Shown: positions 9,950-25,257 of the stretch, in pieces
How the letters are laid out: every line of letters starts with the position of its first letter
Numbering within the stretch: the stretch's first letter is position 1
DNA from: an uncultured Christensenella sp.
Lineage (GTDB): Bacteria; Bacillota; Clostridia; Christensenellales; UBA1242
Length of the DNA: 42,385 bases
Direction of reading: 5' to 3'
Assembly: GCA_949293905.1 (NCBI GenBank)
Contig: CASFFG010000008.1
Location: 1 to 42,385 of the forward strand
Position numbers and translations under genes: made by a program
The notes under the pieces: model-generated
What the model saw: the letters and a program-made list of their open reading frames with translations, nothing else
What the model was told of the DNA's origin: nothing
Databases searched by the model: none

Positions 9950-10849
9950 TTATCTTCTAAAAACTATGTCATGAATTCTATCTAAATCATCTCTTGAATA
10001 ATAATCTATGTAAATTCTACCCTTATTATCGTTACCTATTACAGTAACTTTAGTACCAAATTTTCGCTGCAGTTCTGCTATGAACTCATTTAATTCTTCA
10101 CTAGGAAGTTTACCAACTTTCTTTTTCTTTTTATTACCAAGAATAGCATTAACTTCTTTCTCTAAATCTCTAACAGTCAACTTATCTTTTGCTACTTTCT
10201 TAGCGAGCATTAATTGTGTTGCATAATCACTAACTGATACCAATATTTTCGCATGACCGAATGAAACCTTACCCTTTTCAACCAATTCAAGTACTTCTGG
10301 ATATAAACTCAATATACGAATTGAGTTGGCAATTGCCGGACGGGATTTGCCAATACGCTCAGCAACTTTCTCTTGTGTTAGACCATATTCGTCCATTAAC
10401 TTTTTTATACCCTTAGCAACTTCTACAGGGTTTAAATCTTCCCTTTGTAAATTTTCTATAATAGCAATCTCTGCCACTTGTTTATTAGAATAGTTTTTTA
10501 CTACAGCATCAATTTCTTTAAGTCCACAAATTTTACAGGCTCTAAATCTTCGTTCACCTGCTATTACCATATAACCGTCGGGCATTTTATTTACAATGAT
10601 AGGTTGAATAAGCCCATGAATTCTAATACTCTCTGCTAGTTCATTTAAACTTTCTTTATCGAAATTCTTTCTAGGTTGATTAGGATTTGGATATACCTTA
10701 TTAATATCAATTTTTTCGATATCTCCGCTTCTCATTTGGTATTCTCCAATATGACTCTCTTCATTTTTTTCAATCTTCTTTTCTTCTTCAACTTCTCTGT
10801 CATAAACTTTTAATAGACTGTCAAGTCCTCTACCTAAACCCATTTTCAT
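9950..10849 (-). CDS. parB: Chromosome partitioning protein ParB (Spo0J)
   Basis: ParB is the CTP-dependent DNA clamp that loads at parS and spreads along the origin region, recruiting ParA and SMC. The N-terminal GLGRGLDSLL motif is at residues 4-13. The CTP/arginine-rich motif GERRFRA is at 98-104. The helix-turn-helix for parS recognition is around 150-175 (TQEKVAERIGKSRPAIANS), and a C-terminal dimerisation segment follows. The ATG at 10849 is chosen because AAGGAG lies just upstream; translating further upstream would run into a parS site. The length of 299 aa is normal. A parS site ends 16 bp upstream of the ATG, which suggests autoregulation. Unlike the usual parAB operon, it is separated from parA by 1.1 kb. 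Confidence 0.95.
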   Translation of the reverse strand: MKMGLGRGLDSLLKVYDREVEEEKKIEKNEESHIGEYQMRSGDIEKIDINKVYPNPNQPRKNFDKESLNELAESIRIHGLIQPIIVNKMPDGYMVIAGERRFRACKICGLKEIDAVVKNYSNKQVAEIAIIENLQREDLNPVEVAKGIKKLMDEYGLTQEKVAERIGKSRPAIANSIRILSLYPEVLELVEKGKVSFGHAKILVSVSDYATQLMLAKKVAKDKLTVRDLEKEVNAILGNKKKKKVGKLPSEELNEFIAELQRKFGTKVTVIGNDNKGRIYIDYYSRDDLDRIHDIVFRR

Positions 10850-10864
10850 ATATTTTCTCCTTTT

Positions 10865-10880
10865 TGTTCCACGTGGAACA
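10865..10880. other. parS site 1
   Basis: This is the perfect 16-bp palindrome TGTTCCACGTGGAACA, the widespread ParB-binding parS consensus. It lies immediately upstream of the parB ribosome binding site. Confidence 0.95.
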
Positions 10881-11164
10881 TTCCACAATGAAATCTATAA
10901 TTATTATATCAAAATCAATTTGCGTGGTCAAATAATTTTTGTATATATTTAAAAATTAAATATATTTTTATCATAATGTATAAAATTAATAATTCTCAAT
11001 GTTTAATATTTGGACACCGATATATTATTTCCAACAAATTAATAAGTTTTCTTTAAACTCCAATACAACAAAACGATAGGATAGATATTAATACATTATC
11101 ATAATTGTAATTAATTATAAATAGACTGAACAAAAGTTATTAATTATATCTTGATTTAATAAAA

Positions 11165-18825: not shown

Positions 18826-18965
18826 ACTACATAGTCTAGTACATATGGGCTAGATTTACTAACCCAAATCTTGTAAAAATCAAAAAAGTTTGCGAAAACG
18901 TTGAGCAACTCGTCATAAACCAGTGTTTCACCATATATTCTCGACACGTACACTTAACAAACATT

Positions 18966-19062
18966 TTTCCGCGAGAACTTGTGAGAGCGGAAAGAGGAGC
19001 ACTTGACCAAGAAGCCTATAATTGCGCTATGAAATAAGCAATTTGGCATAAGGTCGCAGTGC
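18966..19062 (+). ncRNA. Structured RNA element, copy 1
   Basis: Two hairpins joined by GAGGA. Hairpin 1 pairs TTTCCGC (18966-18972) with GCGGAAA (18987-18993), with loop sequence GAGAACTTGTGAGA. Hairpin 2 is stacked from four stems: GCACT/AGTGC, GACC/GGTC, GCC/GGC and AATTGC/GCAATT. It has a 1-versus-2 nt asymmetric bulge after the first stem and an A-rich 5-versus-4 nt internal loop after the second. Copy 2 keeps this architecture with different paired bases. No known RNA family is recognised. Confidence 0.65.
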
Positions 19063-19091
19063 ACCGAAACATTCACTCTCAACACAAAATA

Positions 19092-19190
19092 TCTCACGAG
19101 CACTTGTGCGGAGTGAGAAGAGGAGCGACCGAACAAAAAGTCAACATTTGCGTAAACTCCGTTTAGCAAATTGACATAAGTTCGTGTCGC
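19092..19190 (+). ncRNA. Structured RNA element, copy 2
   Basis: Hairpin 1 pairs TCTCAC (19092-19097) with GTGAGA (19113-19118), with loop GAGCACTTGTGCGGA. The linker is AGAGGA. Hairpin 2 stacks GCGAC/GTCGC, GAAC/GTTC, GTCAA/TTGAC and TTTGC/GCAAA, with the same asymmetric bulge and A-rich 5/4 internal loop as copy 1. It ends 5 nt before tRNA-Arg. The conserved single-stranded parts are GAGNACTTGTG in loop 1 and AGGAGC at the linker, while paired bases differ with pairing preserved. Confidence 0.65.
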
Positions 19191-19195
19191 GACGA

Positions 19196-19272
19196 GCGTT
19201 CATAGCTCAGCTGGATAGAGCGTTGGTCTACGGAACCAAAGGTCGGGGGTTCGAATCCCTCTGGACGCACCA
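19196..19272 (+). tRNA. tRNA-Arg (anticodon ACG)
   Basis: A complete cloverleaf. The acceptor stem pairs GCGTTCA with TGGACGC, the anticodon stem TTGGT/ACCAA carries the loop CTACGGA (anticodon ACG), and the T arm has GGTTCGAATCC. CCA is encoded. The ACG anticodon, with A34 edited to inosine, reads CGU, CGC and CGA. A terminator follows at once. Confidence 0.95.
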
Positions 19273-23961: not shown

Positions 23962-25257
23962 ATGGAAAATACTATTGTAGCACTTGCAACTCCACCTGGG
24001 AATAGTGGGGTTGCAGTTATTAGATTAAGCGGAGAAAATTCGTACGAAATTTTAAAGAAAATAACTCACGAAAAAGGCGAATTTACTCCTAGACATATGT
24101 ACTTAAAAAATGTTTATGCGGGCGAAATTGTAGATAATTCTCTCGTTGTGTTTTTTGCATCTCCAAATAGTTATACAGGTGAAGATGTCGCTGAAATTCA
24201 CTCTCACGGTGGATATTTTTTAGCACAAAAAATTATCGAAGAATGTATTAATTTAGGGGCAGTAATGGCTACTCCTGGTGAGTTTTCTAAACGCGCTTTT
24301 ATTAATGGAAAACTCTCTATTGACCAAGCGGAAGGAATTATGGATTTAATCAATGCTGAGAGCGAAATGCAGGCAAAACTCGGCAGTTCGCTAGTTCAAG
24401 GTGAGTTGTTTAAGATGATTTCAAATTATCAAAACGAACTTACAGACATGCTCGCCGAAATTGAAGCAAAACTCGATTATCCAGAATATGAATATACTGC
24501 GAGTGAGAGTTCAAACATTATAAATAGAATTTCAACACTACTAGATAATCTCAACGGACTTATTGAAGATAGCACTAGCGGACTTATTATTAAAAATGGC
24601 GTACGAGTAGCAATCGTAGGTTCACCAAATGTTGGAAAATCTAGTCTACTTAATGCTCTCACCAAATCTAGTAAGGCGATTGTAACCGATGTTGCAGGAA
24701 CCACACGAGATATTGTGGAAGCAGAATACGAATATAAAGGAATTATTTTCCGCCTATTTGATACCGCGGGCATACATGAGAGCAATGATATTGTTGAAAA
24801 AATCGGCATAGATAGAGCAAAACGCGCGCTTGAAGATAGTGACATTGTCTTACTCGTTAGCGACGAAAAAAATATCTGCAATATTTCCACAAACAAACCA
24901 CATATTCGCGTGTTTAATAAGAGCGATATTTCAAAAAAATCGGGTGATTTTGATATTTTTGTAAGTGCCATAACGGGCGAAAATTTAGATAAATTAAAAG
25001 AAATGATTTTCTCTCGCTCAGTTAAATCTAATATTCGCTCGGACAAATTTTACATTACAAATGTCCGTCATATTGAGTGTATTAAACGCGCTATTGAATC
25101 TTTAAACAAGGCAAAAAACGAGTTTAACTCAACCACATTTGACATAATAAGTGCTGAAATAAAGTCCGCTTGGCTTGCGCTTGGTGAAATCACTGGTGTC
25201 ACAAGTAACGAATCTATTATTGATAAAATTTTCTCTAAATTTTGCTTAGGCAAATAA
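23962..25257 (+). CDS. mnmE: tRNA modification GTPase MnmE
   Basis: MnmE works with MnmG to install the 5-carboxymethylaminomethyl (or aminomethyl) group on U34 of certain tRNAs. The N-terminal folate-binding domain is at about 1-120 (IVALATPPGNSGVAVIRLSG). The central G domain has G1 GSPNVGKSS near 218, G2 with TTRD, G3 DTAG and a G4-like NKSD. The C-terminal Cys motif CLGK ends the protein, as in the family. The length of 431 aa is slightly short but within range. The ATG lies 6 nt after the -10 box. mnmG and rsmG follow on the same strand, the classical order near the origin, although here the block points toward dnaA rather than away from it. Confidence 0.95.
   Translation: MENTIVALATPPGNSGVAVIRLSGENSYEILKKITHEKGEFTPRHMYLKNVYAGEIVDNSLVVFFASPNSYTGEDVAEIHSHGGYFLAQKIIEECINLGAVMATPGEFSKRAFINGKLSIDQAEGIMDLINAESEMQAKLGSSLVQGELFKMISNYQNELTDMLAEIEAKLDYPEYEYTASESSNIINRISTLLDNLNGLIEDSTSGLIIKNGVRVAIVGSPNVGKSSLLNALTKSSKAIVTDVAGTTRDIVEAEYEYKGIIFRLFDTAGIHESNDIVEKIGIDRAKRALEDSDIVLLVSDEKNICNISTNKPHIRVFNKSDISKKSGDFDIFVSAITGENLDKLKEMIFSRSVKSNIRSDKFYITNVRHIECIKRAIESLNKAKNEFNSTTFDIISAEIKSAWLALGEITGVTSNESIIDKIFSKFCLGK

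What the first reader, a model, noticed from the sequence alone, without database searches (positions are those of the whole stretch)
18966..19190. Tandem, covarying structured RNA element leading into tRNA-Arg
Two adjacent segments of about 98 nt differ in much of their primary sequence but fold alike: a short hairpin with loop GAGNACTTGTG, an AGAGGA linker, then a long hairpin of stacked stems. Paired bases change on both sides: GCACT/AGTGC becomes GCGAC/GTCGC, GACC/GGTC becomes GAAC/GTTC, and hairpin 1 changes from TTTCCGC/GCGGAAA to TCTCAC/GTGAGA. Bulge and internal-loop sizes are kept. That is compensatory evolution acting on RNA. A promoter lies upstream and a terminator lies after the tRNA, so the elements may be transcribed with the tRNA. 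I recognise no known RNA family, so this is the best candidate for an undescribed system here.
Basis: partly seen in the sequence, partly recalled or inferred. Interest (0 to 1): 0.78.

Follow-up and report, generated by a model that had tools for sequence, protein, structure and literature searches.

The report
Guide-carrying mobile RNA-like repeat family
The two look-alike folded segments before this tRNA gene belong to a large, apparently undescribed family of small folded DNA repeats in gut Clostridia; other members have inserted into RNA genes, duplicating part of the target, and often carry a short stretch complementary to their insertion site.

Summary
Two tandem ~125-nt units (18944-19067, 19069-19195) precede tRNA-Arg(ACG); the second ends GACGA flush with the tRNA. 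They belong to a family ("E"): 25 model matches in this genome, matches in 33 of 34 genus genomes, 56 of 396 sampled in the order, 32 of 391 in the class. The fold covaries strongly; Rfam does not match it.
E is not a dedicated tRNA-Arg leader: 3 of 26 full tRNA-Arg genes seen in the genus have it at their 5' end. It behaves as a mobile element. Direct repeats of target sequence flank 35 of 154 copies, against 24 of 1497 permuted pairs. At 9 of 16 repeat-flanked target types E's 5' flank holds an ~11-nt complement of the target across the insertion point, against 2.5% of mismatched pairs. I infer guide-directed insertion through RNA (or ssDNA); no enzyme was found. The window's own copies belong to the flush class, which shows almost no such repeats or complementarity.

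The parts
18944..19067 (+). Element copy W1 (tail, hairpin 1, linker, hairpin 2, 3' end ACCGA)
   Evidence: cmsearch R1 4.1e-29 (R1 was built with this copy), R2 98.1 bits
19069..19195 (+). Element copy W2, 3' end GACGA flush with the tRNA 5' end
   Evidence: cmsearch R1 2.8e-31 (R1 was built with this copy), R2 116.8 bits; tRNA begins at 19196
18964..18995 (+). W1 hairpin 1, loop GAGAACTTGTGAGA
   Evidence: fold
18999..19062 (+). W1 hairpin 2 (stacked stems GCACT/AGTGC, GACC/GGTC, inner stem)
   Evidence: fold; pair counts
19092..19118 (+). W2 hairpin 1, loop GAGCACTTGTGCGGA
   Evidence: fold
19119..19124 (+). W2 linker AGAGGA (AAGGAG/AGAGGAG in most of the family)
   Evidence: family alignment
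19125..19190 (+). W2 hairpin 2 (GCGAC/GTCGC, GAAC/GTTC, inner stem)
   Evidence: fold; pair counts
19191..19195 (+). Conserved 3' terminus GACGA, directly before the tRNA
   Evidence: 136 of 203 copies end GACG+N
19069..19090 (+). 5' tail of W2, shared with other own-genome copies before tRNA or partial tRNA sequence
   Evidence: alignment; pattern search
19196..19272 (+). tRNA-Arg (ACG)
   Evidence: ARAGORN; Rfam RF00005
19275..19306 (+). Intrinsic-terminator-like hairpin after the tRNA
   Evidence: 1 found; 0.8 expected in shuffles of the region

Best explanation
W1 and W2 are copies of a non-autonomous mobile element family, here called E: about 105 nt of conserved fold (hairpin 1, AAGGAG linker, hairpin 2, 3' end GACG+N) plus a 5' tail. 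SHOWN: the fold is conserved by compensatory change, on this strand in the genus; copies are dispersed; the 3' end often sits on a precise boundary in or beside RNA genes; many copies are flanked by a direct repeat of target sequence, and in the loci read in full an intact gene lies on E's 5' side; at 9 of 16 repeat-flanked target-site types a stretch whose junction point lies about 12-20 nt before hairpin 1 is complementary to the E-strand of the target across the insertion point (4 to about 6 nt on the downstream side, about 7 nt on the upstream side). INFERRED: E is transcribed; the stretch is a guide that pairs with the target strand; E's 3' end becomes joined to the downstream target base, by target-primed reverse transcription or a reverse-splicing-like joining; a break tens of nt downstream on the other strand gives the long duplication. 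The enzyme is unknown. Copies flush with tRNA 5' ends, as in the window, would lie in the pre-tRNA leader, so RNase P would free an E RNA ending in GACGA; whether these are source loci or old insertions is open.
For: Covariation. Strand: G.U 134 against A.C 50. Dispersal. Precise 3' boundary: of 204 copies (202 from the genus, one each in L060 and L061), 52 have a tRNA within -3..+5 nt of the 3' end (30 at the 5' end of a same-strand tRNA, 22 at the 3' end of an opposite-strand tRNA) and none has one within that range of its 5' side; also the tmRNA 5' end (L125), the 16S 5' end (L206), a T-box-like leader (L037, by eye) and a 5S fragment beside an intact 5S (L016). Direct repeats of at least 16/22 in 35 of 154 copies against 24 of 1497 permuted pairs; at least 20/22 in 27 against 3. 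Guide: at least 12/16 in 14 of 26 distinct repeat-flanked insertions against 1 of 576 mismatched pairs; with more genera 15 of 30, against 1, 0 and 1 of 30 in control orientations; one per target type, 9 of 16 reach 11/16 against 2.5% of 240 mismatched pairs. tRNA-Arg loci of three species show the layout by reading (in L172 the inserted piece is below the R2 threshold).
Against: No driver was found. RVT_1 occurs in 8 of 34 genus genomes, not in the own genome nor in several copy-rich ones (G005, G013, G015, G032); Y1 transposase in 7 of 34; TnpB zinc-ribbon in 3 of 34, none over cut-off; in 16 loci around Y1 and RT genes the best R2 match had E 0.48. 7 of 16 repeat-flanked target types show no guide at the threshold. 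Flush copies show almost no direct repeat (1 of 30; 1 of 22) or complementarity (1 of 30; 1 of 22), so one mechanism may not explain both classes, and the window's copies are of the flush class. The guide could be a by-product copied from the target. Eight tRNA-Leu cases may go back to few ancestral insertions. Some of the 35 direct repeats belong to tandem arrays or neighbouring copies. G.U excess also fits ssDNA and was not significant in the other-genus set (32 against 23, p 0.28). A hairpin-foot rule for targets was weak.
Confidence: 0.5

Rival explanations
1. E is a MITE-like DNA repeat mobilised in trans by an unseen transposase as (single-stranded) DNA; the hairpins are transposase binding sites, and the target-complementary 5' stretch is copied from the target by a polymerase template switch during integration.
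For: The hairpins and the terminal GACG (CGTC on the other strand) resemble tagged palindromic repeats (PMC3733652, abstract and CGTC section). Small mobile repeats with variable duplications near dyad symmetry are known (YPAL/RU-2, 3-26 bp; PMC2229807, passages). No RT found in 26 of 34 genus genomes.
Against: The 5' stretch has similar limits in 18 insertions, which a random switch would not give. Duplications are long and vary. No terminal inverted repeat was seen by eye. Y1 transposase in 7 of 34 genomes, with no E match below E 0.48 in the 16 Y1 and RT loci examined.
Confidence: 0.3
2. E is a functional leader or processing RNA of tRNA genes, kept by selection for tRNA expression or maturation.
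For: 30 of 204 copies abut the 5' end of an intact same-strand tRNA; strong covariation; some positions recur between species, for example before tRNA-Glu (5 copies) and before a tRNA-Ile-like sequence near tRNA-Ala (L015, L042, L044).
Against: 3 of 26 full tRNA-Arg genes seen in the genus have E at the 5' end. 22 copies face the 3' end of an opposite-strand tRNA, and 149 of the 201 copies classified are at neither kind of tRNA end. Direct repeats show insertion.
Confidence: 0.12
3. E is a degenerate group II (or group I) intron that recognises targets by EBS/IBS-like pairing and is moved in trans by an intron-encoded protein.
For: The guide spans the junction on the strand that receives E, as EBS1 plus delta (or the group I IGS) does (recalled); E's 3' end is the constant junction, as in the first step of reverse splicing (recalled). 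RT open frames of 338-549 aa exist in 8 of 34 genomes.
Against: No Rfam intron model matches the window copies, even at E up to 10. At ~105 nt it is far smaller than such introns (recalled). The target is duplicated, not simply interrupted. RT presence does not visibly follow copy number.
Confidence: 0.08

Closest known systems
YPAL / RU-2 elements of Yersinia (PMC2229807, passages read)
   Same: Small (~168 bp) mobile repeat, internal inverted repeats, no TA termini, duplications of variable size, targets spanning or next to dyad symmetry
   Different: Duplications 3-26 bp there, from about 16 to several tens of nt here; the paper's text does not hold the word tRNA, and the passages read mention no target-complementary stretch; no sequence comparison was made
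CGTC-tagged REPs (PMC3733652, abstract and CGTC section read)
   Same: On the other strand E begins N-CGTC before a hairpin; [quoted passage not shown] palindromes starting CGTC or TGTC are among E's neighbours
   Different: REPs are 20-40 bp with one 8-9 bp stem; E has two hairpins and ~105 nt; the words Clostridi- and Firmicutes do not occur in the paper's text
Mobile group II introns (PMC3898094, listing abstract only; geometry recalled)
   Same: Target recognised by base pairing of the element's RNA
   Different: No ribozyme core recognised, no Rfam match to the window copies, no linked RT, long target duplication
SINEs moved by target-primed reverse transcription (recalled)
   Same: Short structured non-coding element, fixed 3' end, variable duplications, needs a driver in trans
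   Different: Bacterial; carries a target-complementary segment; no driver identified
Dada DNA transposons (PMC8869645, PMC3706591, listing abstracts only)
   Same: Insert into tRNA or other small RNA genes
   Different: DNA transposons of eukaryotes (fish in one of the two papers)

Membership tests
Any Rfam 15 family | Score above a family's gathering threshold | tested here: not met
   Window: only the tRNA matched; at E up to 10 the only match over the elements was snoZ107_R87, 18.7 bits against a threshold of 50, E 0.27. In 40 other loci matches were tRNA, rRNA and tmRNA genes plus one HPnc0260 hit in L044, outside its element
Covarying structured RNA or ssDNA element | Compensatory changes beyond shuffles and slid controls | tested here: met
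Mobile element | Dispersed copies, empty sites, target duplications | tested here: met
   layout at tRNA-Arg read
MITE | Terminal inverted repeats shared with an IS, TA termini, target duplication | tested here: inconclusive
   Duplications present but long and variable; no terminal inverted repeat seen by eye; no IS comparison beyond Y1, RT and TnpB
YPAL / RU-2 | Sequence relation to the Yersinia repeat | not tested
   No reference sequence was fetched
CGTC-tagged REP | 20-40 bp palindrome, 8-9 bp stem, A-T in the first two stem positions | tested here: not met
   E is ~105 nt with two hairpins; the first pair of hairpin 2 is G-C in 71 and A-U in 41 of 124 copies
REP with RAYT | Associated Y1 transposase | tested here: not met
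   Y1 in 7 of 34 genus genomes; no R2 match below E 0.48 in the Y1 and RT loci examined
Group II intron | Conserved domains / Rfam intron models | tested here: not met
   (window copies)
Group II intron | Guide pairing across the insertion site | tested here: met
   as sequence complementarity in 9 of 16 repeat-flanked target types; not in the flush class
Group II intron | Self-splicing or reverse splicing | not testable with these tools
   needs in vitro RNA work
SINE / target-primed retroelement | Fixed 3' end, variable target duplication | tested here: met
   136 of 203 copies end GACG+N
SINE / target-primed retroelement | RT source in the genome | tested here: not met
   RVT_1 in 8 of 34, none in the own genome
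tRNA leader element | Conserved presence before orthologous tRNAs | tested here: not met
   3 of 26 full tRNA-Arg genes seen have E at the 5' end

The most novel reading that the evidence does not exclude
A bacterial, SINE-like retroelement that finds its target by a built-in ~11-nt RNA guide: the guide pairs with one DNA strand across the insertion point, the opposite strand is nicked within the pairing and primes copying from the RNA's fixed 3' end (a natural counterpart of prime editing), and a long duplication rebuilds the essential RNA gene. Flush copies before tRNAs would be source loci whose RNA 3' end is cut by RNase P.
Probability: 0.35. Interest if true: 0.95.

Novelty: new variant of a known kind. 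Interest (0 to 1): 0.8.

Why it matters
A repeat with a covarying fold, found across a bacterial class, that enters single-copy RNA genes while duplicating part of them, and whose 5' end often matches its own target, would be either a new kind of guide-directed insertion or a very informative record of how small bacterial repeats integrate. It makes the old question of how small structured bacterial repeats move directly testable, and could offer a compact programmable insertion RNA.

Tried and rejected
Tried and weak or negative: (1) Hairpin-foot rule: mean pairing probability of the first 5 nt after E was 0.44 at offset 0 against 0.29-0.41 at offsets 20-80 over 92 distinct flanks, so not a general rule. 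(2) Simple complementarity of tail and 3' flank over 155 copies: mean 12.6 against 11.6 +/- 0.2 in 20 permutations, too diffuse to classify copies. (3) First guide test with 'empty sites' found by sequence search: 127 of 155 copies had one, and 18 of 127 scored at least 13/18 against 75 of 2500 null pairs; replaced by the cleaner direct-repeat test. (4) Drivers: Y1 transposase, RT, TnpB. (5) Longer, autonomous versions: 20 regions of other genomes of the order were fetched; 19 were compared by blastn within eight groups and ORFs were listed for eight; repeats were short, or (L233/L234) a long duplicated stretch with an ORF that looks like a serine recombinase by eye. (6) Phage and plasmid records: no blastn match to 18940-19200; one exact pattern in viral contigs: 0. 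(7) The tail of the flush class as a guide: besides copies of E, 8 own-genome hits at up to 3 mismatches against 9 for the reversed-pattern control. (8) A T-box, group II intron or other known RNA identity for the window copies.

Rows dropped before counts: searches used only copies whose 3' end matched GACG, TCCG, ACCG, GACA or GATG (155 of 203; 154); searches also left out copies directly after another E and copies inserted before another E's hairpin 1 (34 to 26). One search left three of 25 pairs out of the A6 and A7 counts. The 204 copies come from the 130 loci given to (two loci, L060 and L061, are from other genera); the relatives' loci were chosen from the best-first lists, and a few listed places (for example G013:C11:93-219, G008:C46:3531-3651) were not fetched.

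Full report
1. The observation. Two tandem units precede tRNA-Arg(ACG) (tRNA 19196-19272). Model boundaries are 18944-19067 and 19069-19195, a little wider than given. Rfam matched only the tRNA at gathering thresholds and gave only sub-threshold matches, none plausible for the elements, at E up to 10.

2. A family. blastn found three further places in the own genome, each in front of tRNA or partial-tRNA sequence. Six copies gave 16 of 29 pairs with changes on both sides and model R1. R1 found 22 own-genome matches at E < 0.01 (26 at E <= 1) and matches in 32 of 99 genomes, own included. A second model, R2, from 58 copies matched 33 of 34 genus genomes, with 25 matches in the own genome and up to 37 in another, 56 of 396 genomes drawn from the order (21 of 142 genera) and 32 of 391 from the class (18 of 223 genera; 23 of the 32 outside the order); the own genome is counted in each. 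In some searches only 8 or 9 candidates per listed genome were scored, so these are lower bounds; the models' E-values are rough. Two named records that carry a copy are 'uncultured Clostridia bacterium' genomes.

3. The fold is real. 25 of 25 pairs change on both sides in the 58 copies and in 125 copies from other loci; 23 of 25 in 31 copies from other genera. That count alone is reached by 2, 30 and 1 of 500 shuffles; paired cells, both-side cells and covariation score by none. The alignments are fitted to the model, which leans towards the structure; slid controls pair at most 53% of cells, against 90-94%. Three pairs in the middle of hairpin 2 are often unpaired, with G.A and A.G combinations, and look like an internal-loop variant. 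Leaving these out, G.U outnumbers A.C 134 to 50 in the two genus sets, which favours this strand as the folded one; in the other-genus set it is 32 to 23 (p 0.28). Conserved unpaired parts are the hairpin 1 loop, the linker (AAAGGAG/AGAGGAG), the internal loop of hairpin 2 and the 3' end GACG+N.

4. Where copies sit. Of 204 copies (202 from the genus), 52 have an ARAGORN tRNA within -3 to +5 nt of their 3' end: 30 at the 5' end of a same-strand tRNA (21 at exactly 0) and 22 at the 3' end of an opposite-strand tRNA; none has one within that range of its 5' side. Others abut tmRNA (L125), the 16S 5' end (L206), a T-box-like leader (L037, by eye), a 5S fragment beside an intact 5S (L016), tRNA fragments, REP-like palindromes and hairpin 1 of other copies (by eye). 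A general rule that targets are hairpin feet was weak when tested.

5. Mobility. At tRNA-Arg(ACG), one search shows a full gene in 26 of 30 fetched loci (L186 counted by eye); 3 (own, L173, L175) have a copy at its 5' end, and 10 of the 30 loci have a model match anywhere. In L172, L177 and L182 the leader and the first 42 nt of the tRNA occur twice, with a reversed E between the partial and the full copy (the one in L172 is below the R2 threshold and was read by eye). Systematically, 35 of 154 copies have a direct repeat of at least 16/22 of their 3' flank upstream, against 24 of 1497 permuted pairs; at 20/22 or more it is 27 against 3. Some of the 35 are tandem arrays or neighbouring copies (for example L033, L094, L099, L111, L140, L152). 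Repeats range from about 16 nt to several tens of nt; the upper end is uncertain, because the extension step tolerates mismatches. In the loci read in full the intact gene lies on E's 5' side; in L025 a protein gene keeps its end.

6. The guide-like segment. In repeat-flanked insertions the original junction (u|D) can be read directly. The 45 nt before hairpin 1 hold a match to the reverse complement of 9 nt of u plus 7 nt of D of at least 12/16 in 14 of 26 distinct insertions, against 1 of 576 mismatched pairs. With more genera added it is 15 of 30; control orientations give 1, 0 and 1. Over the 18 insertions with at least 11/16, positions -4 to +6 agree in 78-100%, positions -8 to -5 and +7 in 39-61%, and those further out in 11-39%; the choice of these 18 inflates the level within -7 to +8. 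Because species share targets (eight tRNA-Leu cases form one type), I also counted one per target type: 9 of 16 types reach 11/16 against 2.5% of 240 mismatched pairs. Seven types do not. L203, from another family, carries a guide at a tRNA-Arg site.

7. Two classes. Copies flush with tRNAs have almost no direct repeats (1 of 30 and 1 of 22, against 38 of 149 elsewhere) and no more complementarity than permuted pairs (1 of 30, 1 of 22). W2 belongs here, and W1 lies in tandem before it; their tail recurs before other own-genome tRNA or partial-tRNA sequences. In this class RNase P would release an RNA ending in GACGA; this is inference from tRNA processing in general.

8. Mechanism. The geometry (guide pairs with the strand that receives E, E's 3' end joined to D, duplication downstream) fits RNA-guided target-primed reverse transcription or a group II-like reverse joining followed by repair. 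It also fits a DNA transposition that copies target sequence, although the similar limits of the segment speak against a random copy. No driver was found: Y1 transposase 7 of 34, RT 8 of 34, TnpB none over cut-off in 34; in the 16 loci around Y1 and RT genes the best R2 match had E 0.48. I hold mobility as very likely (about 0.9), the target-complementary segment as real (about 0.85), and guide-directed RNA-mediated insertion as the best but unproven mechanism (about 0.35-0.5).

9. Known relatives. YPAL/RU-2 (variable duplications of 3-26 bp next to dyad symmetry; PMC2229807, passages) is the closest published behaviour I saw. CGTC-tagged REPs share the terminal tag and the lack of a known transposase (PMC3733652, abstract and one section). 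Ten paper searches (one search failed) showed no description of this family in their listings; subscription papers and preprints are mostly not held there.

Noticed in passing
L033 750-1950, L068 700-1720, L084 420-1300, L140 (relatives): Tandem arrays of E with related units that share hairpin 1 but have other second hairpins (for example TACGGCGAAATACGCC... or AAAAAAATGACCGCCC...TTTTTT), units following each other directly (by eye).
   Followed up: partly
L017 236-467, L018 1426-1666, L020 1411-1659 (own genome): Three copies of a ~230-nt long-stem repeat with an E nested inside it; around E the flanks pair (GCGCA/TGCGC in L017).
   Followed up: partly
L008, L009 (own genome), L046, L051, L068 (relatives): At tRNA-Leu genes a recurrent layout, with variations: the first ~27 nt of the tRNA, a reversed E, a piece antisense to the tRNA anticodon arm, then the full tRNA.
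   Followed up: yes
L037 1340-1700: An E appears to lie inside a T-box-like leader directly 5' of the antiterminator (by eye; Rfam gave no hit above threshold there).
   Followed up: no
L069, L105, L108, L110, L126, L139, L143, L151 (relatives): REP-like palindromes (TGTCATTCTGAGCG..., CGTCATTGCGAG...) directly follow several copies of E.
   Followed up: no
L155, L156, L157 (relatives); G000:C18:8635-8748: Full-length Y1 transposase genes in a few genus genomes; a short remnant in the window's own genome.
   Followed up: partly
window 9950-10888, 23962-25257: ParB and MnmE genes on this contig.
   Followed up: no
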